Source: Gordonia polyisoprenivorans (GTDB taxonomy: Bacteria > Actinomycetota > Actinomycetes > Mycobacteriales > Mycobacteriaceae). Taken from it: a stretch of 64,000 nucleotides of DNA. Position 1 is the stretch's first letter. Every line of letters begins with the position of its first letter. Under the pieces are notes generated by a model that was not told the DNA's origin, did not search any database, and saw only the letters and a list, made by a program, of their open reading frames with translations. Positions 27,764-51,748 of the stretch are shown here, piece by piece. The stretch is from the NCBI RefSeq assembly GCF_017654315.1, contig NZ_CP072203.1:4960001-5024000 (forward strand), read 5' to 3'. Both the position numbers and the translations under genes were made by a program.

Positions 27764-27810
27764 GAATCCATTGTCCCGTCACGGTCAAGTCAGGCTCCGG
27801 CCCGGCACAT

Positions 27811-27921
27811 TCACCGGCTCCGCCTCAGTGACACTCACCGGCTCCGCCTCAGCCACATCACCGGCTCCGCCTCAGCCACATCACCGGCTCCGCCTCAGCC
27901 ACATCACCGGCTCCGCCTCAG
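27811..27921. repeat. Five tandem copies of an 18-bp unit (23-24 bp period) at the 3' end of ctaG
   Basis: TCACCGGCTCCGCCTCAG occurs at 27811, 27835, 27858, 27881 and 27904 with spacers GTGACAC or CCACA. The last copy contains the stop codon of the CopD-CtaG gene (minus strand, 27918-27920). The array then runs through the gap to the upstream side of the zf-HC2 gene. It has no strong internal hairpin and no CRISPR-like unique spacers. Confidence 0.85.
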
Positions 27922-36166: not shown

Positions 36167-36312
36167 GGTTGCGGCCAGTTCGCCACCCGCCTCTCGTCAG
36201 TCAGATGTAGTCGAGCCGCAAGAGTGGTCGGATGCCGGTGCACAAAGGTTCCCGGGATCGATGAACTTCTTTCCCGAAATGTGTTCGGGTGCGCAGGGCG
36301 TGGTCGGTGCGG

Positions 36313-37752: not shown

Positions 37753-37765
37753 CTTGGTTCGGCGG

Positions 37766-39208
37766 TCAGCGCGTGACGACAGGTCGAAGCGCGCCGAGAT
37801 CACGTTGACGCACAACGCCTTCCCACAGCCCCACACCGTAGGCGAGATCGTCGAGACGGCGACAGATCAGATAGGCGACGGGGCCGATCGCGGGCCCTTG
37901 CGTGGTGTCGGCGAGGACAGCGCGCACCCATTCGATGAGACCCTCGGCGATGGCGACCTCGATGACGAGTATCCGAAATCGCTTGGAGATCAACGCCAAC
38001 AGGACTGCAACCGGCCAATAATGTCGACAGATCGCACCGGCCGCCTGCAGTAGTCCGTATCCGGCCGCGCGGCCAGTCATCTGCGCGGCGGCCACCGGCG
38101 CGTCCGGCAGGTCACCGAGTCGCGTCCGCAATCGATGGGCCACGCGGGCCAGCACGAGAAAAGCGAGAACGAGTCCGAACTTCGTCCGCGACAACAGCGC
38201 CGCGACCGCCAGCGCCATCGACGCCGTCATCACCATCGGTGCGGCGAGCGTGCCGTGCCGCTGAGCCAGGAACGCCGCCCCGGTGCCGTAGTACCGGCGA
38301 CGGGACAACACCTGCCGGAGATTGGTGCGGTGGTCGTGGGCCACCCGGGCCACCGGGTCGTAGCGCATCCGCCAGCCCGCCTCGTGCAGTCGCCAGCACA
38401 GGTCGACGTCCTCGGCCACCCGGAGATTCTCGTCGAATCCGCAAAAAGCACTGCGCCGCACGATCATTGCCGCACTGGGCACATATGGTACGGGCGTACC
38501 GGGAACCACGGCAGCCTCGGTGGGCCCCATGTCGAGTGAGGAGTGACCGTTCTCGTAGCGCTCGGCCATCGACTGGCGTTCACCGCGTCGGGCCGACAAG
38601 CCGACGATCCGGGGAGCGGCCAGCGCAACCAGCGGATCGGAGAAGTGCGCCAGCAGCATCACCAGCCAGTCCGGCTCGGGAACGACGTCGGAGTCGAGGA
38701 AGGCCACGAAGTCGGTTGTCGCAGCCGCAGCCCCGGCGTTGCGGGCTGCGGCCGGGCCGCGATTGGACTCGAATCGGATGACCTGCACCAGCGGCCCCTG
38801 CGCGACGAGGGGCACCGCCGAGCCGTCATCGACCACGATGACCCGGGTACCGGCCACCGCGTCGAGGAGCCGGTCGACGCCGGATTGGTTGTCGCGCACC
38901 GGGATCACCACGGTGACGTCGTCGGGCTTGGGCCCCGACATGGGCCGCGGATGAGCGATGCCCGTCTCGAGCAGCGTCCGCGAGAGCGTGCGCGTGGCGG
39001 TGTTGCACACCTCGATGCGGCCGTCTGCGGAGGTGAGACCGAGCGCGGTGTCGCTGAGCCGGAGCATGCGCGTCGGCGACCCACCGACGAGATAGCGCAG
39101 GTCGCCGCGACGTGCGCACCGCAGATCGATCTGGATCTGGAAACCGTCCGGCAATCCGGAGTCACTCGGGGCGGGCGTCTTCTGCGCGACCCATTCGGTC
39201 GTCGTCAC
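37766..39208 (-). CDS. mftF: Mycofactocin glycosyltransferase MftF
   Basis: 480 aa. An N-terminal segment common to MftF (about 80 aa) is followed by a GT2 domain: DDVTVVIPVRDN, VVDDGS, FLDSDVVPEPDW (DxD) and the acceptor motif VAEDVDLCWRLHEAGWRMRY. C-terminal membrane helices follow. It adds beta-1,4-glucose units to mycofactocin. Start GTG 39208 overlaps the mftE stop (GTGA), and the family start (TTTEWVAQ) fits; an upstream extension to 39274 is unlikely. Second gene of the mftEFG operon. Confidence 0.9.
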   Translation of the reverse strand: MTTTEWVAQKTPAPSDSGLPDGFQIQIDLRCARRGDLRYLVGGSPTRMLRLSDTALGLTSADGRIEVCNTATRTLSRTLLETGIAHPRPMSGPKPDDVTVVIPVRDNQSGVDRLLDAVAGTRVIVVDDGSAVPLVAQGPLVQVIRFESNRGPAAARNAGAAAATTDFVAFLDSDVVPEPDWLVMLLAHFSDPLVALAAPRIVGLSARRGERQSMAERYENGHSSLDMGPTEAAVVPGTPVPYVPSAAMIVRRSAFCGFDENLRVAEDVDLCWRLHEAGWRMRYDPVARVAHDHRTNLRQVLSRRRYYGTGAAFLAQRHGTLAAPMVMTASMALAVAALLSRTKFGLVLAFLVLARVAHRLRTRLGDLPDAPVAAAQMTGRAAGYGLLQAAGAICRHYWPVAVLLALISKRFRILVIEVAIAEGLIEWVRAVLADTTQGPAIGPVAYLICRRLDDLAYGVGLWEGVVRQRDLGALRPVVTR

Positions 39209-39918
39209 CGCAGTCTCCCCCCGTCGTCGACGGTCCACTCGCCGAGCGCCCGCGTCAGGTCGTCGACGACACACGAGAGGAGTTGCGCACCGTGCTCGGC
39301 GGTCGCCGTTCGCGGGTCGCCCAGTACCCCGTTCTCGCTGACCGCGGCGACACCGCCGGCACGCATCGGTGCCATCAGCGCGCCGATCGGCTCACGGTTA
39401 CCCGCCTCGATCCGGTCGGTCAGCACCAACTCTGGCGAAAGATGAAGCAGCACCGAGGTTTCGGTATGACCGGCGTGAGCGTCGGCGTTGGCGAACATGC
39501 ACGGATACCAGGCCACCTCGCGCGCCTCATAGCGCAATCTGGTGACCGCAGCGGCCAGCGTGGGCACGTTGCCACCGTGACCGTTGACGAAGACGATCCG
39601 CCGCGCCCAGCGACACGCGCTGCGACCGAATTCGACGAGGAGGTCGGTCAGCGCCTGCTGTCCCAGCGAGATCGTCCCGGCGAAACCCTCGTGCTCACCG
39701 CTGGCTCCGTAGGCGATCTCCGGTGCGACCGCGACCGGGGCGTCGGCGGGCAATTCCGAACGGGCGGCGGTGGCCACCGCGACGGCGATGCGGGTGTCGG
39801 TGTCGAGCGGGAGATGCGGCCCGTGCTGTTCGACGGAACCGATCGGAACGAGAAGCGTCAGTTCGGCGGGCGTCACCTGCGGCCATGCGTATTGCCCCAG
39901 CCTCGCCGTTCGCACCAT
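39205..39918 (-). CDS. mftE: Mycofactocin peptidase MftE (creatininase family)
   Basis: 237 aa. It has the creatininase-fold metal ligands in LVPIGSVEQHGPHLPLDTD (E30, H32, D41) and VFVNGHGGNVP (H114), plus the C-terminal Glu in AGHTETSVLLHLSPEL. MftE cleaves MftA to release the VY-derived dipeptide after MftC processing. ATG 39918 is 7 nt downstream of a TAGACT -10 and is therefore leaderless, which discards the much longer frame upstream. It is separated from mftD by two + strand genes and 2.5 kb, unlike the contiguous mftA-F order in mycobacteria. Confidence 0.92.
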   Translation of the reverse strand: MVRTARLGQYAWPQVTPAELTLLVPIGSVEQHGPHLPLDTDTRIAVAVATAARSELPADAPVAVAPEIAYGASGEHEGFAGTISLGQQALTDLLVEFGRSACRWARRIVFVNGHGGNVPTLAAAVTRLRYEAREVAWYPCMFANADAHAGHTETSVLLHLSPELVLTDRIEAGNREPIGALMAPMRAGGVAAVSENGVLGDPRTATAEHGAQLLSCVVDDLTRALGEWTVDDGGRLR

Positions 39919-39925
39919 TCGGCCA

Positions 39926-39931
39926 AGTCTA
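39926..39931 (-). promoter_or_regulatory. -10 element (TAGACT) of the mftEFG operon, leaderless
   Basis: TAGACT on the minus strand ends 7 nt before the mftE ATG. It gives the displaced mftE-F-G block its own promoter. Confidence 0.55.
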
Positions 39932-40110
39932 ATGTGCGCGGCGCCTCGGGGTAACCGGTCGTCACCAATTACACGACCAAGATCCCCTGTTCGGACCCGC
40001 TTGGACGAGCGCTCGATCGGTTGTGGAATCCTGGATCGCAGTATGTGTCGCAGAACACGGTCGGCACCAGTCGGCACAACAATGCCGACAACATTCGAGG
40101 GAGGACATCC

Positions 40111-41223
40111 ATGACAGCAGATTCGACACCCACCAGCGGTAAGAGCGGACCGCTGAATCGATTGCGCGTGATCGAGTTCGCGGGCATCGGTCCGGGACCA
40201 CACGCAGCGATGATGCTCGCCGACCTCGGCGCCGACGTCATCCGGGTGCAGCGTCCCGGCACACTGCCGGCCGAGGGCCGCAATGCCGACGCGCTGCTGC
40301 GCGGGCGTCGCGTCGTCGAGGCCAACCTCAAGGACCCGGCCGACCGCGACACCATCCTCGGGTTGGTCGCCAAGGCCGACGTGATTCTCGAGGGATTCCG
40401 GCCCGGCGTGATGGAACGACTCGGCTTCGGGCCCGATGATCTCGCCGAGGTCAACCCCGGCCTGGTCTACGGCCGAATGACCGGCTGGGGCCAGGAAGGG
40501 CCGCGCGCCGAGCTCGCCGGCCACGACATCAACTACATCTCGCTGACCGGCCTGCTGCACGCGATCGGCCGTCACGGTGAGCGTCCGGTGCCCCCGCTCA
40601 ACCTCGCCGGCGACTTCGGCGGCGGCTCGATGTTCCTCGTCATGGGCGTGCTCTCGGCACTCTTCGAGCGACAGTTCTCCGGTCGCGGCCAGGTGATCGA
40701 CGCAGCGATGGTCGACGGCGCTTCCGTTCTGGGACAGATGATGTGGGCCTTCCGCGGCACCGGGCTGTGGTCGGACGAGCGCGGGGTGAACATGCTCGAC
40801 ACCGGCGCCCCGTACTACGAGGTGTACGAGACCTCCGACGGCAAGTACATGGCCGTCGGCGCGATCGAGCCGCAGTTCTACGCCGCACTCCTCGAGGGCC
40901 TCGGACTCGCCGACGCCGATCTGCCGGACCAGAACGACATCGCGAAATGGCCGGAGCTCAAGAAGGTCTTCACCGAGACCTTCGCCTCGCGCACCCGCGA
41001 CGAGTGGGCCAAGGTCTTCGACGGCACCGACGCCTGCACCTCACCGGTGCTGACCTTCGCCGAGGCCCCCACCGACCCGCACATGTCGGCCCGCGCCAAC
41101 CTCCTCGAGATCGACGGCGTCATGCAGGCACAAGTGGCACCGCGGTTCTCGCGCACCTCGCCGGAGACGCCGAGCGGACCGGCCCGCCAGGCCACCGATC
41201 CGTCGACCATCTGGACCGACTGA
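40111..41223 (+). CDS. Alpha-methylacyl-CoA racemase-like CoA-transferase family III enzyme
   Basis: 370 aa, full length for the family (about 360-380). [32 protein letters not shown] is the N-terminal CaiB/BaiF motif. The catalytic region [17 protein letters not shown] contains the Asp and GHDINY typical of alpha-methylacyl-CoA racemases, and [21 protein letters not shown] follows. Such racemases epimerise C25 of sterol side chains and methyl-branched acyl-CoAs. Start ATG behind GGGAGGAC. It sits between the two mycofactocin blocks and is followed by a strong hairpin and a 21-bp repeat array. No KstR box is visible upstream. Confidence 0.87.
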
Positions 41224-41249
41224 CCGGATCGCACCTCCTCCGTCCGACG

Positions 41250-41279
41250 CGGGGCGCCGACGATGTCGTCGGCGCCCCG
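41250..41279. terminator. Strong terminator after the racemase gene
   Basis: Perfect 14-bp arms (41250-41263, CGGGGCGCCGACGA; 41266-41279, TCGTCGGCGCCCCG) with a TG loop, starting 26 nt after the stop and just before repeat array 1. Confidence 0.8.
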
Positions 41280-41287
41280 TCTTGTCG

Positions 41288-41401
41288 CGACAGCGCCCTC
41301 CACCTCGCCGACAGCGCCTTCTGTTGTGCCGACAGCGCTCGTGCCAACGCCGACAGCGCTCTCCAACTCGCCGACGGCGCCCGTCTCAGCGCCGACAGCG
41401 C
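41288..41401. repeat. 21-bp tandem repeat array 1 (six units, inverted orientation)
   Basis: CGACAGCGC or close variants recur at exactly 21-bp spacing (41288, 41309, 41330, 41351, 41372, 41393). The intervening 12 bp are variable. This is the reverse complement of the core seen in arrays 2 and 3 (GCGCTGTCG). It fills the gap between the racemase terminator and the KstR-like box of the SDR gene. Confidence 0.9.
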
Positions 41402-41429
41402 TTTCCCTCGGTAGCCCACCCCACCGAAA

Positions 41430-41445
41430 TAGAACGTGTTACAGT
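41430..41445 (+). promoter_or_regulatory. KstR-like operator overlapping a -10 upstream of the mycofactocin-type SDR
   Basis: TAGAACGTGTTACA (41430-41443) fits the reported KstR consensus TnnAACnnGTTnnA. It overlaps TACAGT (41440-41445), a TANNNT -10 that ends 8 nt before ATG 41454. Repression by a sterol-responsive KstR is inferred; kstR itself is not in the window. Confidence 0.6.
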
Positions 41446-41453
41446 TTTTCCTC

Positions 41454-42269
41454 ATGGGACAGTTCGACGGCAAGGTCGTCTACATCACCGGCATCGCCCG
41501 TGGCCAGGGACGTAATCACGCGCTCCGCTTCGCCCGTGAGGGTGCGTCGATCATCGGACTCGACATCGCCGGCGAGGTCGCCGACCACATCACCTACCCG
41601 GCGTCGACTCCGGACGATCTTGCCGAGACGATTCGCCTCGTCGAGGAAGCCGGCGGCAAAATCCTTGCACGTCAGGGGGATACGCGAGATCTGGCGTTCC
41701 AGGAGGAGCTCGTCGCCGACGGCGTGCGGCAATTCGGCCGCCTCGATCATGTGATCGCCAACGCCGGCATCCTCTCGTGGGGGCTCACCTGGGAGCTCTC
41801 CGAACACGAATTCACCGACGTCATGGACGTCAATGTGGTGGGCACCTGGAAGACGTTGCGCGCCACCATTCCCACGCTCCTGGAGACCGACGCCGAGAAC
41901 CGCTCGATCGTCGTCATCTCGTCGGTCGCCGGGCTCAAGGCGATGCCCGTCCAGGCGGCCTACTCGGCGTCGAAATACGCGCTCACCGGACTGGCACAGA
42001 CAACCGCCAAAGAACTCGCCCCGCGCCGCATCCGCGTCAACTCGATCCACCCCTACGCCGTCAACACGCCGATGGGCATCGCCGACACCTCAGCCATGAA
42101 GATCTTCGAGATGGGCGAGTACACAAGGTATTTCATCTCGATGATGGATCACTTCCCGGTTGCCTCGCTCGACGACATCTCCGACGCCGTGCTCTACCTC
42201 ACCTCACCGCAAGCGCGCGCGGTCACCGGCTCGCAATTCCAGATCGACATGGGAAACTCCAAGGTCTGA
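41454..42269 (+). CDS. Mycofactocin-coupled SDR family oxidoreductase
   Basis: 271 aa. TGIARGQGRNHAL at 12-24 (cofactor glycine motif), IANAGILS near 101, catalytic Ser157, Tyr170 and Lys174 (YSASK). TGxARGQGRxHA and the roughly 20-residue insertion after the first helix are characteristic of mycofactocin-dependent SDRs (TIGR03971), which retain a non-exchangeable NAD and pass electrons to mycofactocin. Likely substrate: an alcohol in steroid or terpenoid catabolism, given the KstR-like box. ATG 41454 is chosen over an upstream ATG that lies inside the promoter. The stop abuts repeat array 2. Confidence 0.9.
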   Translation: MGQFDGKVVYITGIARGQGRNHALRFAREGASIIGLDIAGEVADHITYPASTPDDLAETIRLVEEAGGKILARQGDTRDLAFQEELVADGVRQFGRLDHVIANAGILSWGLTWELSEHEFTDVMDVNVVGTWKTLRATIPTLLETDAENRSIVVISSVAGLKAMPVQAAYSASKYALTGLAQTTAKELAPRRIRVNSIHPYAVNTPMGIADTSAMKIFEMGEYTRYFISMMDHFPVASLDDISDAVLYLTSPQARAVTGSQFQIDMGNSKV

Positions 42270-42384
42270 GCGCCGTCGGCGAAACCGAGGGCGCCGTCGG
42301 CGAAAAACAGAGCGCTGTCGACGGAATCGAGAGCTCCGTCGGCGAGATACCGGGCGCTGTCGGCGAAAAACAGAGCGCCGTCGG
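42270..42384. repeat. 21-bp tandem repeat array 2 (six units) directly after the SDR stop
   Basis: GCGC(C/T)GTCG recurs at exactly 21 bp (42270, 42291, 42312, 42333, 42354, 42375), with GCTCCGTCG at 42333. The first unit starts one base after the SDR stop codon. The last unit forms the left arm of the terminator hairpin at 42371-42404. Confidence 0.9.
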
Positions 42385-42404
42385 CGGGAACCGACGGCGC
42401 TCTG
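42371..42404. terminator. Terminator formed from the last 21-bp unit and its inverted copy
   Basis: CAGAGCGCCGTCGG (42371-42384) and CCGACGGCGCTCTG (42391-42404) are perfect 14-bp arms around CGGGAA. TCTTTC follows. It is bidirectional, serving the convergent SDR and mftD genes. Confidence 0.75.
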
Positions 42405-42449
42405 TCTTTCGTAGCCTGTTTCTGCGGCGTTCTTCCGGCGCGGATTCGC

Positions 42450-43652
42450 TCAGATGCTGCCGAAGGACCGATCGAAGTCCTCGGGGATGATCAGGTCATC
42501 GCGCGAGAGTTCGTGAATACTCTTGTGGCCCAGTCCCATCACCACGCCGTCGAGGCCCATGCGGAGCAGGTCGAGGACGTTCTCGACGCCCGCCTGACCG
42601 TTGGCCGCCAGACCCCACAGGTAGGCGCGACCGATCATGACCGCGCGCGCCCCGAGCGCGAGTGCCTTGGCGACGTCGCTGCCGCGGCGGATGCCGCCGT
42701 CGAGCAGGACCTCGATCTGGTCGCCGACCGCCTCGGCGATGCCCGGCAGCAGGCGGATGGTGGCGGGGGTGCCGTCGAGGTTGTTGCCACCGTGGTTGGA
42801 CACCGACAGCGCGGTCGCCCCGATGTCGACGGCCCGCTTGGCGTCGTCGAGACGGGTGACGCCTTTGACCATGAACGGTCCGCCCCACTGCTCGCGCAGC
42901 CATTGAAGGTCGTCCCAGGTGGGCGGAGCCGTGCTCATCCACTCGCCGTAGGCACCGAAGAATGTCGGGCCGGGCTGCCCCTTACCCTTGGAGACGTTGG
43001 GCGCGGTCAGGTCGGGAATGATGATCTTGCCGTCGTGAATCCAGTCCATCGCATAGCGCGGCTTGACCGCGATCTCCGGCGCCAGACGCAGCAGAGCCTT
43101 GAAGTCTACCTTCTCCGGGATCTCCGGGCTTCCCCAGTCGCGACCGATGTTGAACACCCAGTCGGTCGTGACGATCAGACCTTTCGCGCCGGCTTCCTTG
43201 GCGCGCATGGCACGCGCCAGGATTTCGTCGCGACTGCCGAGCCAGTAGATCTGGAAGAAGATCTTGTCGTTGACCGCGGTGACCTCTTCGACCGGATGAG
43301 AAGCGAAGCTGGACAAGCCCATTGCGGTGCCGCGCGCTGCCGCGGCGCGCGCCACCGCGACCTCGCCGTCGGGGTCGACGGCCTGTACGCCGGTGGGGCT
43401 GATCATCACCGGGAACGACAGGTCCTGGCCCATCACGGTGGTGGAGAGTTCACGATCGGGCTGCGCGCCGATCACATGCGGGGCAAACCCGATCTCGGAG
43501 TACGCGTCGACGTTGTCGCGCACCGTCACGCCGGCCTGGGTGCCGGCGATCAGCGAGGAGTACACCGATTTCGGCAGTCGCTTCTTGGCGCGACGCTGCG
43601 CTTCGTGAACGGTTTCGAACCAGGGATTGCGGGCCCAGGGATTGGTGACCAT
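42450..43652 (-). CDS. mftD: Mycofactocin FMN-dependent dehydrogenase MftD
   Basis: 400 aa. Alpha-hydroxy-acid dehydrogenase fold: PVMISPTGVQAVDPDGE, FFQIYWLGSRDEI, GPFMVKGVTRLDDAKRAVDIGATALSVSNHGGNNLDGTPATI (catalytic His) and VLLDGGIRRGSDVAKALALGARAVMIGRAYLWGLA (FMN phosphate). MftD oxidatively deaminates AHDP to premycofactocin, the redox-active core. It lies 95 bp downstream of mftC in the mftABCD operon. Start ATG with AGGA upstream. Array 2 and its terminator lie downstream. Confidence 0.95.
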   Translation of the reverse strand: MVTNPWARNPWFETVHEAQRRAKKRLPKSVYSSLIAGTQAGVTVRDNVDAYSEIGFAPHVIGAQPDRELSTTVMGQDLSFPVMISPTGVQAVDPDGEVAVARAAAARGTAMGLSSFASHPVEEVTAVNDKIFFQIYWLGSRDEILARAMRAKEAGAKGLIVTTDWVFNIGRDWGSPEIPEKVDFKALLRLAPEIAVKPRYAMDWIHDGKIIIPDLTAPNVSKGKGQPGPTFFGAYGEWMSTAPPTWDDLQWLREQWGGPFMVKGVTRLDDAKRAVDIGATALSVSNHGGNNLDGTPATIRLLPGIAEAVGDQIEVLLDGGIRRGSDVAKALALGARAVMIGRAYLWGLAANGQAGVENVLDLLRMGLDGVVMGLGHKSIHELSRDDLIIPEDFDRSFGSI

Positions 43653-43747
43653 TGTGTGTTCCTACCTATTTTCTTTACTTGTTCGTCGCAGCATCGAACC
43701 ACCCGGGCGGCCGGCCCGAGTGCTCGACGATCCGCCACGCGGGGGTA

Positions 43748-45025
43748 CTACAGGGCGAATCCCGCCAACGGGTTCTCATCGCAGTTCTTCGACGGCGGCC
43801 CACCGATCGGGGTGATCTCCCCGTCGGGTTGCCGGGTCATCAGTGTCAACGGGGTACCGCGGGAATGATCTTTGTTCGCAGTCGGTTTGGCGCGCTCACC
43901 GGCCAGCAGCTCCTCGCCGTATCCCTGCACGCACTCCGGGTCGGGTCCGGCCAGCGGCAGTCCGGTGAAGAACTTGGCCGCCATGCAGCCGCCGCGGCAG
44001 GCGTCGAAATGGGCACAGCGCGTGCAGGCTCCGGCGTTCTGCGGCTCACGAAGCTCGGTGAAGAGGTCCGATTTCTGCCAGATCTGTTGGAAGCCACCGT
44101 CGGTGGTGATGTTGCCGGCGAGGAAGTTCTCGTGGATCGCGAACGGGCAGGCATAGACGTCGCCGACCGGATCGATGAGGCACACCACGCGACCCGCGCC
44201 GCACAGATTCAGCCCGGGCAGGCCAGACCCGCCGGTCCCGCCGAATGCCGACAGGTGGAAGAACGAGTCGCCGGTGAGGACGTTCTCGCCGTGGGCGACG
44301 AGCCAGTCGTAGAGTTCGCGCTGCTGTTCGGGCAGCGGGTGCAGGTCGTCCCAGACGTCGGCGCCGCGGCCCGACGGGCGCAGCCGGGTGATGCGCAGAG
44401 TGGCGTTGTAGCGGTCGGCGAGAGCCTTGAACTCGTCGAGCTGCGCGACGTTCTGCCGTGTCATCACCACCGAGATCTTCGCGTCGGCGAATCCCGCCTC
44501 GTGGAGGTTTTCCAGCGCGCGCACGGCCATGTCGAACGAGCCGGGGCCGCGCACGGCGTCGTTGACCTCCGCGGTCGCACCGTCCAGCGAGATCTGCACG
44601 TCGACGTAGTCCGACGCGGCCAGCCGCGCAGCGACCTTCTTGTCGATCCGTAAACCGTTGGTGGAGAACTTGACTCCCACCTGATGGCTGGTGGCGTAGT
44701 CGACGAGTTCCCAGAAGTCCGGGCGCACCGTCGGCTCCCCGCCACCGATGTTGACGTAGAAGACCTGCATGCGCTGCAGTTCGTCGATGATCGCCTTGCA
44801 CTGTTCGGTCGACAGCTCACGCGGGTCGCGCTTACCCGAGGACGACAGGCAGTGCACACATGCCAGGTTGCAGGCGTAGGTCAGCTCCCACGTCAGGCAG
44901 ATCGGGGCGTCGAGCCCTTTCTCGAACTGATCGACCAGACGCCCGACCTTGGGGGGCGCGCTGGGCTGCAGCGTCGGCATGGCGGCGAGTTCGGTTGCGG
45001 TGGGCGGCAACTCGAGTGTGGTCAT
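43748..45025 (-). CDS. mftC: Mycofactocin radical SAM maturase MftC
   Basis: 425 aa. The radical SAM motif C52-x3-C56-x2-C59 (YACNLACVHCLSS) is intact. A SPASM domain with auxiliary cluster cysteines follows (CAHFDACRGGC). It contains NIGGGEPTVRPDFWELVDYA, the GGE motif. MftC decarboxylates and cross-links the C-terminal Val-Tyr of MftA in complex with MftB. ATG behind AAGGAG. It lies 55 bp after mftB. Confidence 0.96.
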   Translation of the reverse strand: MTTLELPPTATELAAMPTLQPSAPPKVGRLVDQFEKGLDAPICLTWELTYACNLACVHCLSSSGKRDPRELSTEQCKAIIDELQRMQVFYVNIGGGEPTVRPDFWELVDYATSHQVGVKFSTNGLRIDKKVAARLAASDYVDVQISLDGATAEVNDAVRGPGSFDMAVRALENLHEAGFADAKISVVMTRQNVAQLDEFKALADRYNATLRITRLRPSGRGADVWDDLHPLPEQQRELYDWLVAHGENVLTGDSFFHLSAFGGTGGSGLPGLNLCGAGRVVCLIDPVGDVYACPFAIHENFLAGNITTDGGFQQIWQKSDLFTELREPQNAGACTRCAHFDACRGGCMAAKFFTGLPLAGPDPECVQGYGEELLAGERAKPTANKDHSRGTPLTLMTRQPDGEITPIGGPPSKNCDENPLAGFAL

Positions 45026-45080
45026 CTTCGGGTCTCCTTGGGCTCGAGGAGCGGTGGTGGACGGTGGACGAGAACGCCGG

Positions 45081-45431
45081 TCAGCGGCGGACGATCATCC
45101 CGGAGTCGGCCAGGGCGGTCAGCGCCTGCAGGTACAGCGCGCGCTCGGCGGCTCCGATCCCGGCGGCAGCCAGGGCGGACTCGGCGTCGTCATGCTCGGC
45201 GAGGGAGCGCACGATCCCGACGACGGTCAGGTTCTTGAGGAATGAGAGTTTGCGGGTACCGAAGTGATACAGCAACGCCCCGAAGGGTTCCGGGCGTAGT
45301 GCGACCTTGGGGTTGAGCTCCCAGGCGGCGTCGAGATCGAAGGTGGACAGGGTGGCGGGGGCGTCGCGCCGGTCACCGGCGACCGCGGAGTCGCGGTCGC
45401 CGGCAACCGGAGCAGATGTCGGGGTGGACAT
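45081..45431 (-). CDS. mftB: Mycofactocin RRE chaperone MftB
   Basis: 116 aa. The body AWELNPKVALRPEPFGALLYHFGTRKLSFLKNLTVVGIVRSLAEHDDA matches MftB, a PqqD-like RiPP recognition element that presents MftA to MftC. The N-terminal 30 residues are disordered. ATG 45431 overlaps the mftA stop by one base; a 5-codon longer frame is less likely. Length is close to the usual 95-110 aa. Confidence 0.93.
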   Translation of the reverse strand: MSTPTSAPVAGDRDSAVAGDRRDAPATLSTFDLDAAWELNPKVALRPEPFGALLYHFGTRKLSFLKNLTVVGIVRSLAEHDDAESALAAAGIGAAERALYLQALTALADSGMIVRR

Positions 45432-45553
45432 CAGTAAACCCCGCACATCCCGTCGATCGAGACCTCTTCGACGAGGGACTCACCCACGAGCTCGGTCTCG
45501 ACGTCGGCGGGAACCGCCACGTCCTGAGTTGCCTTGGCTGTGTGATCGGCCAT
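45431..45553 (-). CDS. mftA: Mycofactocin precursor peptide MftA
   Basis: 40 aa, too short for most gene finders. The leader region is acidic/neutral ([23 protein letters not shown]...), and the end is the invariant [10 protein letters not shown], whose final Val-Tyr becomes mycofactocin. GGAGG lies 7 nt upstream of the ATG. The stop overlaps the mftB ATG (TGATG). It is first gene of the mftABCD operon, divergent from mftR. Confidence 0.97.
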
Positions 45554-45598
45554 GATCCAAACCTCCTAATATTCGGGTAGTGATGTGGATCACCGACC

Positions 45599-45630
45599 AC
45601 TATAATGGCACCGGGTGCAGAATTGCACCC
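45599..45630. promoter_or_regulatory. Overlapping divergent promoters and probable MftR operator
   Basis: ACTATAAT at 45599-45606 holds a -10 on each strand: TATAAT (+, for mftR) and TATAGT (-, for mftA). Seven bp further, GGGTGCA-GAAT-TGCACCC (45613-45630) is a perfect 7-bp inverted repeat. Its position between the promoters suits autoregulated TetR-type MftR. Confidence 0.6.
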
Positions 45631-45683
45631 CCTAGCCGAAAATTGACCAAACGGACAGGTCCCGACCTGGTGAGAGAGGTCTG

Positions 45684-46280
45684 ATGACGACCGAGAACGC
45701 GACGGCGCCGGGCCGGCGTCCGCGCACCAGCCGCGCGCAGATCAGCGCGACCGCCATCGACCTGTTCACCACCGTCGGCTTCGAGGAAACCAGCGTCGAC
45801 GACATCGCCGAGGCCGTCGGCATCGCGCGTCGCACGCTGTTCCGGTACTTCCCGTCGAAGAACGCGATCCCGTGGGGCGAGTTCGACGCCCACCTCGACG
45901 ACCTGCGTGCGCTGCTCGCCGAGATCCCCGACGACCTCCCCATCGCCGAGGCCGTCACCCGGGCTCTGATCGCCTTCAACGAGGTGCCCGCAGAATTCCT
46001 CGACGGCCACCGCCGGCGCATGCAGCTACTCCTGGGAGTGCCGAGCCTGCAAGCACATTCGATGTTGATGTACGCCGACTGGCGCCACGTCATCGCCGAG
46101 TTCTGCGCCCACCGGCTCGGCCTGGACGAAGGCGATCACCTCCCGCAGACGATCGGCTGGCTGTGCCTGGGCACCGCCCTGGCCGCCTACGAACAATGGC
46201 TCGCCCATCCCGACGCCGATCTCGACGCACTCATCCGAGCGGGGTGCGCAACGCTGGCCGCGGGGCTGGAGGGGTTGTAA
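45684..46280 (+). CDS. mftR: Mycofactocin system TetR regulator MftR
   Basis: 198 aa. TetR HTH at about 15-60 (RAQISATAIDLFTTVGFEETSVDDIAEAVGIARRTLFRYFPSKNAIPWGEFDAHL), which matches the MftR signature (ARRTLFRYFPSKNxxxWGxFD). The rest is a helical ligand domain; MftR in mycobacteria responds to acyl-CoA. It is divergent from mftA with a shared operator region. Array 3 follows downstream. Confidence 0.93.
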   Translation: MTTENATAPGRRPRTSRAQISATAIDLFTTVGFEETSVDDIAEAVGIARRTLFRYFPSKNAIPWGEFDAHLDDLRALLAEIPDDLPIAEAVTRALIAFNEVPAEFLDGHRRRMQLLLGVPSLQAHSMLMYADWRHVIAEFCAHRLGLDEGDHLPQTIGWLCLGTALAAYEQWLAHPDADLDALIRAGCATLAAGLEGL

Positions 46281-46388
46281 GTGCTCATCGCACGCGGTAG
46301 ACCCCGTCACCGACTCGGCGGCACACGTGTGGTCCTCGATGCCGAGGCTCGCGATCGACGGGTTCGCCGAGCCAGCCCCGCGACTCGA

Positions 46389-46607
46389 TCGTTGTCGATG
46401 AGATACCGAGCGCTGTCGACGAGATACCGGGCGCTGTCGACGTGACCGAGAGCGCTGTCGGGGAGAAATAGAGCGCCGTCGACGAAGTCCTGAGCGCTGT
46501 CGGCGAGAGACGGGGCACTGTCGACGTGACCGAGAGCGCCATCGACGTAATCAAGGGCGCCGTCGACGAAGTCCTGAGCGCTGTCGGCGAGAGACGGGGC
46601 GCTGTCG
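46389..46607. repeat. 21-bp tandem repeat array 3 (ten units plus a degenerate one)
   Basis: GCGCTGTCG or one-base variants recur at exactly 21 bp from 46410 to 46599 (46410, 46431, 46452, 46473, 46494, 46515, 46536, 46557, 46578, 46599), with a degenerate copy at 46389. It lies in the 489-bp gap between mftR and kshB. No other gene signal is seen there apart from the KstR-type box. In several frames the array reads as a 7-residue repeat (SAVDE-like or RALSA-like), but stops interrupt it. Confidence 0.92.
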
Positions 46608-46705
46608 AGGAAATACCGGCGACACCGCCGCCACGGACCGCCCTCTACCCTGGAACCGATCGCCTTGCCGGTGTCGACAGCCCGACATCTAGGCTAGGCT
46701 CAAAG

Positions 46706-46723
46706 TAGAACGTGTTCTAGTTT
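46706..46723 (+). promoter_or_regulatory. Perfect KstR-type operator and -10 of kshB
   Basis: TAGAACGTGTTCTA (46706-46719) is a perfect palindrome matching the KstR consensus TnnAACnnGTTnnA. It overlaps a TAGTTT -10 (46718-46723), giving a leader of about 40 nt before ATG 46770. KstR controls cholesterol catabolism, and kshB belongs to that regulon in mycobacteria and rhodococci. Confidence 0.8.
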
Positions 46724-46769
46724 TCGCACCTTCGACTTGCACCTTCGACGACGCCAGGAGACCTGAGCC

Positions 46770-47840
46770 ATGACCGGATCGGACACGACCGAACTGACGC
46801 CGCACGGCTCGCGCAGCGTGATCCTCACCGTGGCCGAGGTCATCGACGAGACCCACGATGCACGGTCGATCGTCTTCGAACTCCCCGATACGGCCAAAGA
46901 CGCGTTCACCCAGTACAAGTCGGGCCAGTTCCTCACCCTGCGCATCCCGAGTGAGCAGACCGGGTCGGTGGCCCGCTGCTACTCACTGGCCTCCTCCCCC
47001 GCCCGAGACGAACTGCCCAAGGTGACGGTCAAGCGCACCGTCGACGGCTACGGGTCGAACTGGGTGTGCGACAACCTCTCCGCGGGCTCACAGATCGAGG
47101 TACTGCCACCGTCGGGGGTGTTCACCCCGCGGTCGGTCGACGAACCGCTCCTGTTGATCGCTGCGGGCAGCGGGGTGACCCCGGTGATGTCGATCCTCAA
47201 GACCGCCCTGGCCTCCGGGAGCGGCACCATCGTGTTCTTCTACGCCAACCGCAGCGCCGACGACGTCATCTTCGCCGACGAACTGCGCGAGCTACAGACC
47301 GCGCACGCCGACCGGCTGGTCCTCATCCACTGGCTCGAGACGCTGCAAGGCCTGCCCCGTGCGCAGTCCCTGGCGACGATCTTCGGTGCCTTCCGCGGCC
47401 ACGCCGCCTACATGTGCGGCCCCGGCCCCTTCATGGACGCCGTGCACCAGGCGCTGCACACCGCGGGCTTCGCCCATCACGACGTGCACGCCGAGGTCTA
47501 CAACTCGCTCTCGGGTGATCCCTTCGCCGACGTGGTCCTCGACGAGGTGAGCGCCGAGGAGCAGGCCGACGCCGCCACGGTGGAGGTCGAACTCGACGGC
47601 GAGACCCACGAGCTGACCTGGCCCCGCAAACGCACCCTGATCGACATCATGCTCGAGGCCGGACTCGATGCGCCGTACTCGTGCCAGGAGGGTGAATGCG
47701 GTTCGTGCGCATGCACTCTCACCGACGGAACCGTCGAGATGGACAACGCGGGTGCGCTCGATCCCGAGGACATCGCCGACGGCTATATCCTCGGGTGTCA
47801 GGCCCATCCGACTTCCGACCGACTGCGAATCGAGTTCTGA
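46770..47840 (+). CDS. kshB: 3-ketosteroid 9-alpha-monooxygenase, ferredoxin reductase component
   Basis: 356 aa. An FAD domain (RCYSLASSPARDELPKVTVKR) is followed by an NAD(P) domain (LIAAGSGVTPVMSILKTAL, YMCGPGPFMDAV) and a C-terminal plant-type [2Fe-2S] with C305, C310, C313 and C343 (SCQEGECGSCAC ... GCQAHP). This order (FAD-NAD-2Fe2S) is that of KshB/HmpA-like reductases, which pass electrons to the oxygenase KshA. The KstR-type box upstream supports KshB over other reductases. ATG behind GGAG. kshA is not in the window. Confidence 0.88.
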   Translation: MTGSDTTELTPHGSRSVILTVAEVIDETHDARSIVFELPDTAKDAFTQYKSGQFLTLRIPSEQTGSVARCYSLASSPARDELPKVTVKRTVDGYGSNWVCDNLSAGSQIEVLPPSGVFTPRSVDEPLLLIAAGSGVTPVMSILKTALASGSGTIVFFYANRSADDVIFADELRELQTAHADRLVLIHWLETLQGLPRAQSLATIFGAFRGHAAYMCGPGPFMDAVHQALHTAGFAHHDVHAEVYNSLSGDPFADVVLDEVSAEEQADAATVEVELDGETHELTWPRKRTLIDIMLEAGLDAPYSCQEGECGSCACTLTDGTVEMDNAGALDPEDIADGYILGCQAHPTSDRLRIEF

Positions 47841-47841
47841 C

Positions 47842-48219
47842 GTGCTCTCACGCCTGTCCCCCATCCAGCTCGCCCGCGCCCTGGCGGGAATGCTGCTGAC
47901 CATCGGCACCCTGCACTTCGTGGCGCCGAAGCCGTTCGACGAGATCATCCCGGAGGAGATCCCCGCCGACCCGCGCATGCTGACCTATGCCTCCGGTGTC
48001 GCCGAGGTCGCGCTCGGCGTGGGACTTCTCGTCCCGGCCACCCGCAAGCCGTCCGCCGCCGCAGCCGCGGCCCTGTTCGTCGCGGTGTACCCGGCCAACA
48101 TCAACATGGTCCGGCTGTGGTGGCACAAGCCGGCGATCTACAAGGCGATCGCCGTCGGACGGCTGCCGCTGCAGTTCCCGATGATCGCCGCGGCGATCAA
48201 GGTGTTCCGGGCGTCCTGA
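47842..48219 (+). CDS. DoxX-like small membrane protein
   Basis: 125 aa, about four membrane helices. LARALAGMLLTIGTLHFVAPKPFDEIIPEEIPADPRMLTYASGVAEVALGVGLLVP followed by PANINMVRLWWHKP is the pattern of the DoxX/DUF-like family. The GTG starts one base after the kshB stop, so the two are co-transcribed and possibly coupled. It may form a redox membrane partner, but no cofactor motif is visible and no function is assigned. Confidence 0.75.
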   Translation: MLSRLSPIQLARALAGMLLTIGTLHFVAPKPFDEIIPEEIPADPRMLTYASGVAEVALGVGLLVPATRKPSAAAAAALFVAVYPANINMVRLWWHKPAIYKAIAVGRLPLQFPMIAAAIKVFRAS

Positions 48220-48342
48220 CGATCGAGAACGCCGTCGGGCAACCCTGGCCGTCACCGAGGGCCCGTCGGGGTTCTACCGTGGATTGGTGTCCGCGACCCG
48301 AAATCCCCAGCCCGGTGATCACCAACGGCCCGGTGACGACGC

Positions 48343-49698
48343 GTGACGGCGCCGGACTCCCCTGATCTCACACCAGAAGCGCCCGAAGAGGACACCGGTG
48401 CACGGGTTCTCGTCTGGCTGACCATCGTCGCCACGATCGCCGGTGCGATCACCGGTCTGGTCGGCGGGGCATTCCGGTGGCTGCTGATCCGCGCCGATCA
48501 CCTGCGCGCCGATCTGATCGACTGGACCCACCACCACGGCCCCGCCGCCTGGCTGATACCCGTGGTGATCTCGGCGACCGCGGCGCTCATCGCGGCACTG
48601 ATCACCCGATGGGAACCGCGCGCGGCCGGCAGCGGCATCCAGCATGTGGAGGCCGTCGAACGCGGCGAGGCCGCACCACCGCCACCCGCGGTCATCCCGG
48701 CCCGCTTCGTCGGCGGCCTGCTGGCCATCGGCGTCGGCGGGATGGTCCTCGGCCGAGAGGGTCCGACGGTGCACATGGGCGCCGCGATCGGCGCGCTCAC
48801 CGGCCGCGTGTGCCGCGCCACCATGCGCGAGATCCGGGTACTGCAGACCACCTTGTCCGGTGCCGGTCTCGCCGTCGCATTCAACGCACCGATCAGCGGC
48901 ACCCTGTTCTGCATCGAGGAGATCGCCAAGACCGTCAAGGTGCGCTACGTCCTCTGGACGATGGCCGCGGTCGCCGCAGGCACCGTGTGCAGCCGACTGA
49001 TCGTCGGCAACCATCCCGACTTCGTCGTCCCGCAGATCAATTCCGTTGCGTTGTCCTCACTTCCGGTGTTCGTCGTCTTCGGCGTCGTGGTCGGGCTGCT
49101 CGGCGTCGTCTACAACTGGCTGATCCGTGCCTGTCTGAGCGGCTTCGCGGCCATCCCCCGGGTGCCCGGCCCGGTGAAGGCCGCGATCATCGGAGCGGTC
49201 ATCGGGGCGGTGCTGACCATCGACCCCGACCTCGGCGGCGGCGGTGACGACCTGACGCAGAACATCCTGTCCGGTCAGCATCTGGCCTTCTGGGCGATCG
49301 TGATGCTGCTGGCGATCCGCTTCGTCGCCGGCCCGGTGTCGTATTCGGCGGGCACGCCCGGCGGCATCTTCGCCCCTATGCTGGCGCTCGGCGCCATGAC
49401 CGGTCTCGTCGCCTCGCGGCTGATCGATCTGGTGTCGCCGGGCTACGGGCACGAGCTGTTGTTGCCACTGATGATCGTGGGCATGTCGTCGTTCTTCACC
49501 GCCGTGGTCCGTGCCCCGTTCACCGGCGCGGTGCTGGTGATGGAGATGACCTCGACGACCTCGGTTGCGGTGTCGGTGCTCGCCGCGGGGGCCGCGACGA
49601 TGATCGTCGCCGAACTGCTGCGTTCGCCGCCGATCTACGACGATCTGCGCGAACGCATGTTGCGGCAGTGGAAGGGCCACGAGGCCGAGGGCGTCTGA
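48343..49698 (+). CDS. ClC-family chloride channel/antiporter
   Basis: 451 aa, about 11-12 membrane helices. The ion-pathway motifs are GSGIQHVEA (GSGIP-type), GREGPTVHMGAAIG (GxEGP with the gating Glu) and GTPGGIFAPMLALGA (GxFxP). The gating Glu of GREGP is present. Whether it is a channel or H+/Cl- exchanger depends on the internal proton Glu, which is not resolved by eye. Start GTG without a strong ribosome site. It stands alone between kshB-DoxX and the AlkD-like gene. Confidence 0.9.
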   Translation: MTAPDSPDLTPEAPEEDTGARVLVWLTIVATIAGAITGLVGGAFRWLLIRADHLRADLIDWTHHHGPAAWLIPVVISATAALIAALITRWEPRAAGSGIQHVEAVERGEAAPPPPAVIPARFVGGLLAIGVGGMVLGREGPTVHMGAAIGALTGRVCRATMREIRVLQTTLSGAGLAVAFNAPISGTLFCIEEIAKTVKVRYVLWTMAAVAAGTVCSRLIVGNHPDFVVPQINSVALSSLPVFVVFGVVVGLLGVVYNWLIRACLSGFAAIPRVPGPVKAAIIGAVIGAVLTIDPDLGGGGDDLTQNILSGQHLAFWAIVMLLAIRFVAGPVSYSAGTPGGIFAPMLALGAMTGLVASRLIDLVSPGYGHELLLPLMIVGMSSFFTAVVRAPFTGAVLVMEMTSTTSVAVSVLAAGAATMIVAELLRSPPIYDDLRERMLRQWKGHEAEGV

Positions 49699-49726
49699 GC
49701 GATCGGTGCCGGACGGCCCGCGAGAC

Positions 49727-50446
49727 TCATCGCATCGCGCGATAGCCGGCGCGCATCGCGGGATCGAGATGCTCGATCGCATACCGCAGCGCGGTGCGTC
49801 CCATCGACGCCGCATGGGCGTCGAGATAATCGGTGAGCGTTGATCTCTCGACGCGCTTGCCCATCTCGCGCAGCATCCAGCCCAGCGCCTTCTGGATGAG
49901 GTCGCGCCGGTCGTCGATGACGAGCGGCGCCACCGCCAGCGTGGGGCCGGCGTCACCCTCACGCAGGTGGGCGTGGGTGCCGACGATACCGACCCGCCGG
50001 TGCCAGAGCCGCTCGTCGGCGGCGAGGTCGACGAGCGCGGTGTGGTCACCGATCCGTACACACCAGTGTCCGAGAACCGGTGCGGCCGAGGTGTCGACGA
50101 GATCCCAGTTGTTCACATACCCGTCGTCGACGGCCCGGCGATAGTCGGCGACCCACGCGCGAGCGTCGGCGTCGTCGGCGCGCGCGGACTCCTGCGCCAT
50201 AAGAAGTAGTGCGAGAAACCGGATCTCGTGGATCGGCGAACTCAGCAGCTCGCCGACGGCACTGCGGTCGATGCCACGCCACCGGCGGGCCAACACACGC
50301 AGTTGCGGCACCGCGACCCCGACGAACTCGTCGCCCTCACCGTAACCACCGGGCCGGGCCTGCAAATAGCGTGCGATACCCGCGGCCCGCTCGGCGTCAC
50401 CGAGTTCGCCGACCTCGGCGATCACCTGCGCGGCAACGGAATCCAC
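49727..50446 (-). CDS. AlkD-like DNA alkylation repair protein
   Basis: 239 aa. HEAT-like helical repeats typical of PF08713: the segments GVAVPQLRVLARRWRG, EIRFLALLLMAQESARADD, NNWDLVDTSAAPVLGHWC, LIQKALGWMLREMGKR and a C-terminal TALRYAIEHLDPAMRAGYR are characteristic. The family excises or binds N-alkylated purines. NNWDLVD corresponds to the Trp/Asp active-site region of AlkD. It lies 13 bp after a FAD reductase gene on the same strand. Confidence 0.88.
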   Translation of the reverse strand: MDSVAAQVIAEVGELGDAERAAGIARYLQARPGGYGEGDEFVGVAVPQLRVLARRWRGIDRSAVGELLSSPIHEIRFLALLLMAQESARADDADARAWVADYRRAVDDGYVNNWDLVDTSAAPVLGHWCVRIGDHTALVDLAADERLWHRRVGIVGTHAHLREGDAGPTLAVAPLVIDDRRDLIQKALGWMLREMGKRVERSTLTDYLDAHAASMGRTALRYAIEHLDPAMRAGYRAMR

Positions 50447-50459
50447 GGCGACCCCGCGG

Positions 50460-51683: not shown

Positions 51684-51748
51684 CCTCGGTTCTCGCCCTC
51701 TCGTTGACGGTGCTGCCCGCATCAGCGGTTCGAATGTCGCTGCCCGCA

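What the first reader, a model, noticed from the sequence alone, without database searches (positions are those of the whole stretch)
41288..46607. Three 21-bp tandem repeat arrays around the mycofactocin locus
Arrays at 41288-41401, 42270-42384 and 46389-46607 share a core GCGC(T/C)GTCG with an exact 21-bp period and 6, 6 and 10-11 units. Array 1 is inverted relative to the other two. All lie in gaps downstream of + strand stops. 21 bp equals seven codons, and several frames read as degenerate heptapeptides (SAVDE-like or RALSA-like). They are not CRISPRs, as no spacer is protected. They could be a dispersed intergenic element, terminator/insulator or nucleoid-protein site. I know of no description of such arrays in this locus.
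Basis: seen in the sequence. Interest (0 to 1): 0.85.

Follow-up and report, generated by a model that had tools for sequence, protein, structure and literature searches.

The report
Gordonia's genome-wide 21-bp DNA arrays
The three repeats belong to a family of 21-base DNA arrays, some seventy per genome by extrapolation, that sit mostly just after genes, and sometimes in frame inside them, in a Gordonia bacterium; related species carry arrays with their own version of the repeated core, which suggests that an as yet unknown DNA-binding protein likely recognises them.

Summary
In detail: three arrays of exact 21-bp period (about 6, 6 and 11 units), array 1 inverted, all behind + strand stops. 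They are not special to the mycofactocin locus: this Gordonia genome has 304 two-unit matches against 9 in the reversed control, and 83 stretches at even 60-kb steps hold 20 arrays, about 73 per genome. A unit is a ~13-bp core, RGCGCYGTCGGCG, a free 7-bp spacer and a G. Within arrays the spacer varies about four to six times more than the core. Of those 20 arrays none lies between divergent genes and 4 are in frame inside genes. Twenty of 59 Gordonia genomes have 10 or more hits of at least one of five core dialects, and four sites carry different dialects in different species, one known from protein only. The arrays are thus very probably read as DNA. Best guess: a helically phased landing strip for an unknown binding protein (0.45); main rival: a spreading repeat without host function (0.3). 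No protein was identified; nine paper searches found nothing like it.

The parts
41288..41402 (-). array 1: six 21-bp units (one at its left end decayed), core on the - strand, between the stop of the CoA-transferase-like gene and the start of the SDR gene
   Evidence: same gap holds 13 units in G. oryzae (L032)
42270..42386 (+). array 2: six 21-bp units, begins inside the SDR stop codon
   Evidence: orthologous gap holds 18 units in G. oryzae (L032) and arrays of other dialects in other Gordonia
42363..42412 (+). hairpin made from the last unit of array 2 and an inverted copy of it, with TCTTTCG behind the inner stem; terminator-like
   Evidence: z -6.1; in sister genome G034 one pair is C-G instead of T-A (one event)
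46389..46610 (+). array 3: eleven 21-bp units (first one decayed), between mftR and a ferredoxin-reductase-like gene
   Evidence: one search shows no RNA structure beyond shuffles
41251..41278 (+). separate inverted repeat (13-base arms) behind the CoA-transferase-like stop, next to array 1
   Evidence: read from the sequence
40168..41223 (+). CoA-transferase-like gene upstream of array 1 (below every NCBIfam cut-off)
41454..42269 (+). mycofactocin-coupled SDR gene (TIGR03971) between arrays 1 and 2
42450..43652 (-). mftD (TIGR03966), convergent with the SDR gene across array 2
43748..45025 (-). mftC (TIGR03962)
45081..45431 (-). mftB (TIGR03967)
45684..46280 (+). mftR (TIGR03968), upstream of array 3
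46770..47840 (+). ferredoxin-reductase-like gene downstream of array 3 (below every NCBIfam cut-off)

Best explanation
The three arrays are members of a genome-wide family of 21-bp tandem arrays, each unit a conserved ~13-bp core plus a freely varying 7-bp spacer, and they likely act at the DNA level as rows of binding sites for an unidentified sequence-specific protein that would sit on one face of the helix (21 bp is two turns) and organise or mark the DNA behind genes. Shown: the family, its period, its mostly 3'-gap and in-frame inter-domain positions, the low variation of the core against the spacer, the species dialects and the same sites carrying different dialects. Inferred: that a protein reads the core, that the two-turn spacing lets bound copies contact each other, that the dialects drift because site and protein co-evolve, and that the host gains from it (for example by bridging or insulating transcription units). 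Untested: the identity of the protein and any effect on expression or chromosome folding.
For: Constraint on the core: 0.11 differences per site (0.07 without its two variable positions) against 0.52 in the spacer within 39 G000 intergenic arrays; a neutral simulation with the same detection filter gives 0.22 against 0.46. Arrays at orthologous sites in sister genomes (mostly 91-95% DNA identity) have other copy numbers and partly other spacers but the same core. Spacers are not shared between loci beyond a column-shuffle null (10 against 6.7, sd 2.6), so recent copying of whole units between loci is not what keeps the core uniform. DNA rather than RNA: both orientations behind genes, arrays mid-gene between protein domains, third bases in coding cores fit the core in 271 of 281 fourfold codons against 138 expected. 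Promoter avoidance: 0 of 12 array-bearing gaps divergent in the strictly even sample, where 206 of 570 gaps of at least 100 bp are divergent (P 0.0046), and 1 of 21 in all 101 stretches (P 0.0014). Period: in the loci with lag-21 segments, where lags 18, 20, 22 and 24 were compared without a pattern, those other lags almost never score. Same sites, other dialects: PKS linker, lgt tail, AAA-ATPase linker (protein only), SDR 3' gap.
Against: No binding protein was found or even nominated. 39 of 59 Gordonia genomes have fewer than 10 hits of all five searched patterns, so any function is dispensable or uses cores I did not search. Nine of 11 dialect-E loci of G028 with matching G000 DNA in hand have no G000 array of three or more units there (both flanks matched in 4 of the 9), which fits turnover of a spreading element as well. 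In 400 kb from seven other Gordonia genomes a pattern-free scan finds only 3 intergenic lag-21 segments (G009 1, G003 2), and G009 shows other lags as often. The third-base test is biased because units are picked by core match. 21 bp also equals seven codons, so the period alone does not prove helical phasing, and the counting patterns fix the spacing themselves.
Confidence: 0.45

Rival explanations
1. A spreading (selfish or MITE-like) repeat family with no host function: arrays are seeded at new sites by an unknown machinery, expand by tandem duplication, and survive only where they do no harm, behind genes or in frame in flexible linkers.
For: Site gain or loss between dialect groups: 9 of 11 G028 loci without a G000 array. 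In-frame copies inside genes. Lineage-specific families. In G028 four loci (L268, L279, L282, L283) share parts of an outer flank such as GTGCTGGGCGCG (by eye), as a mobile element would.
Against: Copies at orthologous sites keep the core while spacers diverge, which an idle copy would not. The Y1/RAYT transposase family PF01797 is found in 0 of 59 genomes (rings in 5 of 14 controls); other transposases were not searched. Array 3 has no match on plasmids or phages; the 2 viral contigs with one two-unit match each were not followed. Sites shared across dialects need a homogenising step.
Confidence: 0.3
2. 3'-end RNA elements: the arrays end transcription or protect mRNA ends by forming hairpins, singly or as inverted pairs.
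For: Position behind stops; array 2 ends in a strong hairpin with one compensatory change in a sister genome; close opposed pairs are all of the - then + order (7 of 7 in G000), so facing cores can form a stem.
Against: Array 3 folds no better than shuffles (z -1.0). Orientation relative to the upstream gene is mixed, 24 against 14. Arrays lie in the middle of an NRPS, a PKS and an AAA ATPase, where a terminator would be harmful. The terminator scan finds no more than shuffles do in this region (2 against 2.6).
Confidence: 0.1
3. Gyrase or topoisomerase landing sites like BIME-2: arrays lie where positive supercoils build up, behind and between converging genes.
For: Enrichment in convergent gaps (5 of 12 array gaps against 57 of 570 gaps of at least 100 bp, P 0.0043; 8 of 21 against 71 of 697 in all stretches, P 0.0007), GC content that swings with the 21-bp unit (0.80 core, 0.56 spacer). 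In E. coli gyrase cuts are enriched downstream of transcribed units and in BIME-2 (PMC6379681, passages seen).
Against: Species dialects would be odd for a highly conserved enzyme (recalled); 39 of 59 Gordonia genomes have few or none of the searched arrays.
Confidence: 0.08
4. Neutral replication-slippage minisatellites without any constraint.
For: Copy number varies between strains and species.
Against: Core uniform across dozens of unrelated loci, spacers free; the core/spacer difference is not reproduced by the neutral simulation; single cores outside arrays are not enriched between genes (1 against a mean of 0.62 for permuted words), so there is no visible reservoir of seeds there.
Confidence: 0.05

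Closest known systems
REP / BIME elements with RAYT transposases
   Same: dispersed, extragenic, mostly behind genes, lineage-specific sequence families, inverted pairs, clusters; BIME-2 binds gyrase in E. coli
   Different: unit is not a palindrome, strict direct 21-bp period, free spacer, in-frame copies inside genes, no Y1 transposase hit in 59 genomes
DNA uptake sequence dialects of Neisseriaceae (PMC3630211 and PMC3868556; titles and starts of abstracts seen)
   Same: short conserved word with species dialects and a cognate receptor
   Different: between genes the word occurs here in arrays, not as enriched single copies
Rickettsia palindromic elements and other in-frame coding repeats (PMC3733652 passages; PMC2996958 start of abstract)
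   Same: repeats found between genes and in frame inside genes (for RPEs recalled)
   Different: those are palindromic inserts or protein repeats; here the same DNA core is kept across several reading frames and both strands
MIRU/VNTR loci of mycobacteria and STRR/LTRR arrays of cyanobacteria (recalled; only listings seen)
   Same: dispersed tandem repeats between genes, variable copy number
   Different: no fixed core with free spacer and no genome-wide dialects are known to me
Eukaryotic satellite DNA with a protein-binding box (recalled)
   Same: arrays, concerted change of the bound word, variable copy number
   Different: very short arrays dispersed over dozens of loci of a bacterial chromosome

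Membership tests
REP/BIME | palindromic 20-40 bp unit with a GTAG or CGTC tag | tested here: not met
   unit logo RGCGCYGTCGGCG-N7-G, not a palindrome; definition from passages of PMC3733652
REP/BIME | RAYT / Y1 transposase in the genome (for GTAG families) | tested here: not met
   PF01797 in 0 of 59 Gordonia genomes, 5 of 14 controls ring
REP/BIME | dispersed and extragenic, behind genes | tested here: met
   strictly even sample: 9 codirectional, 7 convergent, 0 divergent, 4 coding of 20 arrays
CRISPR array | longer repeats with unique spacers of similar length (recalled) | tested here: not met
   21-bp unit with a 7-bp spacer; spacers recur within arrays
DNA uptake sequence | over-represented single copies genome-wide | tested here: not met
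   outside arrays 1 intergenic core against mean 0.62 for 40 permuted words; 36 coding against mean 8.0, sd 13.4, i.e. no clear excess over that wide spread
intrinsic terminator | stable hairpin followed by a T run | tested here: inconclusive
   hairpin at the end of array 2; array 3 not structured; scan at chance level
Rickettsia palindromic element-like in-frame insert | in-frame copies in coding genes | tested here: met
   4 of 20 arrays in the strictly even sample; hosts
Rickettsia palindromic element-like in-frame insert | palindromic unit | tested here: not met
array of protein-binding sites | a protein binds the core | not testable with these tools
   needs a binding experiment
array of protein-binding sites | core conserved against spacer | tested here: met
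   dialect A in three species sets, dialect E (0.10 against 0.45, 20 arrays)
Rfam RNA family | match at gathering score | tested here: not met
   0 matches in window 36000-52000

The most novel reading that the evidence does not exclude
A bacterial satellite DNA with a co-evolving reader: dozens of 21-bp arrays spread over the chromosome whose recognition core is rewritten in place, genome-wide and even inside coding genes, each time the binding specificity of a dedicated protein shifts, so that every array-bearing Gordonia lineage writes its own dialect.
Probability: 0.4. Interest if true: 0.92.

Novelty: new variant of a known kind. Interest (0 to 1): 0.82.

Why it matters
If a protein reads these arrays, Gordonia offers a natural series of species in which a DNA word and its reader have drifted at dozens of loci per genome, which makes site-reader co-evolution and concerted change of dispersed repeats testable in bacteria. 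The arrays would also serve as hypervariable typing loci, they lengthen or shorten proteins in steps of seven residues (linkers of a PKS and an AAA ATPase, the Lgt tail), and some contigs of draft genomes start inside them, so they likely break assemblies.

Tried and rejected
Local curiosity of the mycofactocin locus: rejected, the family is genome-wide. CRISPR: rejected on unit geometry. REP/RAYT: rejected. Phages or plasmids: no match with array 3 as the only query; two viral contigs with one two-unit match each were looked at only as raw sequence. Exchange of units between loci: no excess sharing of spacers (against a half-shuffle null sharing is lower, 10 against 16.4). Uptake-sequence-like single copies: rejected for intergenic DNA. 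Matches outside Gordonia: Propioniciclava and Microbacterium are heptad repeats in long coding frames, a look-alike; Mesorhizobium and Krumholzibacteriota were only printed as rows.

Corrections on the way. My first gene calls ran a start through an array and missed a divergent one; one search masks arrays. Its sample of 101 stretches is not even: 83 lie on a strict 60-kb grid, but I placed several of the last 17 (and the window is the finding itself) where one search had shown arrays. One search recounts on the 83: 20 arrays, 73 per genome; the 91 per genome and the P values are superseded. Two hits (L127, L139) were dropped as chance matches inside genes. I took the L008/L276 host for a fatty acid synthase in notebook entry 5; Pfam shows acyl transferase, carrier and thioesterase domains, i.e. 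a PKS.

Paper searches that found nothing on such arrays: (nine searches of open-licence PubMed Central; listings capped at 6-20 rows). That is not proof that nothing is in print.
Full report
1. The observation. The three arrays are there, at the stated places and with an exact 21-bp period. Array 1 (41288-41402) runs on the - strand, arrays 2 (42270-42386) and 3 (46389-46610) on the + strand. Array 2 starts inside the stop codon of the gene for a mycofactocin-coupled SDR; array 1 lies in front of that gene, array 3 behind mftR (gene names from NCBIfam).

2. Genome-wide family. The window lies in a 6.03-Mb single-contig Gordonia genome, called G000 here, without a name. The Gordonia carriers named are G. 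oryzae RS15-1S and G. polyisoprenivorans NBRC 16320; orthologous loci in hand are 87.6-95.1% (G. oryzae) and 92.2-95.3% (G. polyisoprenivorans, 3 loci) identical to G000, leaving out one doubtful match (L062). The two-unit pattern with up to 2 mismatches gives 304 matches, the reversed control 9. I took 100 stretches of 20 kb and the window, 2.064 Mb. Only the first 83 stretches lie on a strict 60-kb grid (1.66 Mb); several of the last 17 were placed where one search had shown arrays. On the grid there are 20 arrays of three or more units, 111 units, median 5, about 73 arrays per genome; in all 101 stretches 31 arrays. Two further hits inside genes were dropped as chance. Period 21 and its double, 42, are the commonest lags of intergenic tandem segments in the 101 stretches (23 and 17; next is 15 with 11).

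3. Anatomy of the unit. Weighted by array (48 arrays, 205 inner units, unit match of at least 11 of 13) the unit is R-GCGC-Y-GTCGGCG-N7-G: near-fixed positions with a C/T and a weaker G/A position, seven almost free positions and a G (0.92). GC content is 0.80 in positions 1-13 and 0.56 in the spacer. Within arrays positions 2-13 differ at 0.113 per site (0.068 without the two variable positions), the spacer at 0.518 (39 intergenic G000 arrays); 0.101 against 0.369 in 9 coding arrays; G. oryzae 0.064 against 0.363 (32 arrays); G. polyisoprenivorans 0.114 against 0.456 (10 arrays). A neutral simulation passed through the same filter gives 0.22 for the core at a spacer value of 0.46, and keeps under 1% of its trials there. 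So detection bias does not explain it.

4. Where the arrays lie. With arrays masked during gene calling, the 20 grid arrays are 9 between codirectional genes, 7 between convergent ones, 0 between divergent ones and 4 inside genes; they fill 12 gaps, 5 convergent and 7 codirectional, where 570 gaps of at least 100 bp are 307 codirectional, 206 divergent and 57 convergent (P 0.0046 for the lack of divergent, 0.0043 for the excess of convergent). In all 101 stretches 21 array gaps are 8 convergent, 12 codirectional and 1 divergent (P 0.0014 and 0.0007). Sets chosen for holding arrays: G000 loci L001-L029, 9 codirectional, 1 convergent, 2 divergent (one of them doubtful, L027), 5 coding of 17; G. 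oryzae 11, 8, 1, 9 and 3 unassignable of 32; G. polyisoprenivorans 4, 4, 0, 2 of 10. By the earlier gene calls, codirectional arrays lie closer to the upstream stop than to the downstream start in 33 of 38 cases (medians 15 and 102.5 bp), and both orientations relative to the upstream gene occur, 24 against 14 (all four sets, orthologs included). Gene calls are from my own codon-usage script, not from an annotation. Close opposed pairs have the - array left and the + array right in 7 of 7 cases in G000, 4 of 4 in G. oryzae and 1 of 1 in G. polyisoprenivorans (some are orthologous). In the capped listings for G009 I saw the opposite order, without a count.

5. Arrays inside genes. They are in frame and lie between domains or in tails: NRPS, between carrier and condensation domain; PKS of acyl transferase, carrier and thioesterase order, once before and once behind the carrier domain; the C-terminal tail of lgt; in front of an amidase domain; behind a cutinase/PE-PPE-like domain (one of the seven hosts scanned has no Pfam match). 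In coding cores the third base of fourfold codons fits the DNA core in 271 of 281 cases, 138 expected from codon usage. The units were picked by core match, and tandem units and orthologs are not independent, so this is support, not proof.

6. Age and turnover. In orthologous gaps and genes of G. oryzae and G. polyisoprenivorans arrays sit at the same sites with other unit numbers; spacers have partly changed, cores hardly (15 locus pairs printed, chosen from loci that hold arrays). Named G. polyisoprenivorans entries of the AAA ATPase are 744, 751 and 758 residues long, steps of seven, with the difference in the repeat linker. Spacers are not shared between loci more than column shuffles allow (10 against 6.7, sd 2.6), so copying of whole units between loci is not visible.

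7. Dialects. At the SDR locus I held 30 genomes of 59. A lag-21 array is detected in 8 of the 30; two more (G034, G017) show a few units by eye. Their cores differ. I then counted two-unit patterns in 59 Gordonia genomes; the reversed control was 0 throughout in these five searches. A, RGCGCYGTCGRCG (up to 1 mismatch): G000 198, G001 177, G034 100, six others 1-2. B, GGTGCYGTCGGCG (2 mismatches): G070 153, G003 126, G036 103, G028 69, G076 63, G001 41, G010 39, G031 35, G000 32, G080 23, G034 15, G075 13, thirteen others 1-5. C, RGCGCACAGTCGRC: G009 95, G079 71, G070 58, G017 34, G032 33, G068 20, G012 18, G073 17, G030 9, G000 7, six others 1-3. D, GCGCCCACTCGAC: G009 43, G008 40 (listed ones all GGGCCCACTCGAC), G079 21, G080 18, G070 11, five others 1-4. 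E, GGTTCYGTCGGCG: G028 101, G080 47, G070 42, G003 39, G010 11, G036 6, G076 3, two others 1. With 2 mismatches neighbouring dialects cross-match (E in B and the reverse, A in B), so the numbers are not additive. The patterns fix the 21-bp spacing. A looser A pattern gave 304, 265 and 182 in G000, G001 and G034, 59 in G003 and 6 to 35 in the other 33 Gordonia genomes of that search, with controls of 0 to 9 in the genus. Twenty of 59 genomes have 10 or more hits of at least one of the five patterns. On a tree of the SDR protein (30 genomes) the three A genomes form one side of a branch (97/94) and the labels, assigned by me, cluster more than shuffled ones (10 changes, shuffled mean 13.8, 0 of 200 as low). 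Against a simple picture: in 20 stretches of 20 kb from seven other Gordonia genomes a pattern-free scan shows 3 intergenic lag-21 segments, 1 in G009 and 2 in G003, and none in G070, G079, G017, G028 and G080; short arrays fall below that scan's threshold.

8. Same site, other dialect. (a) Behind the SDR gene: A in G000, G001, G034; B in G070; C-type in G009 and G079; E in G028 and G080 (positions by locus coordinates). G003 has a D array on the other side of the SDR gene. (b) PKS linker: LNAYIDEQNAK followed by ADSA heptads in G000, G. oryzae and G. polyisoprenivorans and by ADGT heptads in G028. (c) lgt tail: an array at the same place in G000, G. oryzae and G028; of 117 homologous tails long enough, among the 120 listed of 7995 proteins, 19 are lag-7 periodic, with ADSA, TDSA/VDSA, ADST/ADGT and other heptads (a few of these Asp-rich tails need not be arrays). 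(d) AAA-ATPase linker: SAVG heptads in G. polyisoprenivorans and G. oryzae, SAVN/SAVS heptads in Gordonia sp. VNQ95, VNK1 and an unclassified one (28 of 120 listed proteins printed; protein only, the DNA was not seen). Against this, 9 of 11 G028 loci with matching G000 DNA have no G000 array of three or more units there; both flanks matched in 4 of these 9. Only the two coding sites are shared in that set. The G028 loci were chosen by me from the listings (20 loci, 29 arrays of two or more units: 17 convergent, 7 codirectional, 3 coding, 1 divergent, 1 unassignable).

9. Beyond Gordonia. Three GTCGRC words at 21-bp steps, in 397 genomes of the order, match at least once in 357 genomes, so the pattern is not specific; it stands out in G174 (175 against control 7), G337 (51 against 2) and G449 (24 against 1), and in Gordonia in G000 (114) and G080 (32). 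GTCGAC is its own complement, so many places count twice. Loci of the three show 21-bp arrays with other units, mostly in DNA without strong coding signal by a Gordonia codon table. The pattern was preselected for GTCGRC, so it cannot show that this word is universal.

10. Reading. Uniform core, free spacer, two-turn period, both strands, mid-gene copies and in-place dialect change point to sequence-specific reading of DNA. A spreading element without function explains site turnover and copies in genes, but not the constraint on copies at orthologous sites. A terminator function fits the end of array 2 (z -6.1; one compensatory pair in G034) and not the family. Gyrase fits the positions and not the dialects; the comparison with E. 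coli rests on passages of PMC6379681. I commit to protein-binding arrays at 0.45, because no reader is known. The recount weakened the position statistics (from about 2e-4 to about 5e-3 on the strict grid) and lowered the copy estimate from 91 to 73; the odds rest mainly on core against spacer and on the dialects, so I left them.

11. From recall: VH2 as a laboratory strain, MIRU, STRR/LTRR, RPE insertion in genes, satellite boxes, helical repeat of 10.5 bp, mftA (ORF 45431-45553, not scanned). Papers: passages of PMC3733652 and PMC6379681 were seen; of PMC3630211, PMC3868556 and PMC2996958 only title and start of abstract.

Noticed in passing
L268, L279, L282, L283 (G028 dialect E loci): Inverted pairs whose two arms match including spacers in L268, L282 and L283, with a partly shared outer flank (GTGCTGGGCGCG or its complement, by eye); no array in the matching G000 DNA. 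Looks like a MITE-type unit.
   Followed up: partly
L285:1001-2159 (G028): A - array and a + array flank a ~300-residue open frame; the matching place in G000 has about 110 bp between the two flanks.
   Followed up: partly
L037, L040 (Propioniciclava, Microbacterium): Exact matches to the array pattern that are coding heptads (LADGA type) in long reading frames: a look-alike to exclude.
   Followed up: yes
L248-L267 (G449, G174, G337): 21-bp arrays with other units in genomes of two other genera of the order, one of about 17-18 units (L265).
   Followed up: partly
G001:C5:3, G079:C107:11, G079:C112:1 (listings): Contigs of draft genomes start in arrays, so the arrays likely break short-read assemblies.
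   Followed up: no
window 27806-27922: 23-bp tandem repeat, five copies, 94% match; not the same unit.
   Followed up: no
window 57346-57409 and G000 stretches: 15-bp tandem repeat in the window; lag 15 is the next commonest intergenic period in the G000 stretches (11 segments).
   Followed up: no
L226, L227: Two viral contigs with one two-unit match each, apparently the same sequence.
   Followed up: partly
window 45431-45553: Small - strand frame at the expected place of the mycofactocin precursor gene mftA; not scanned.
   Followed up: no
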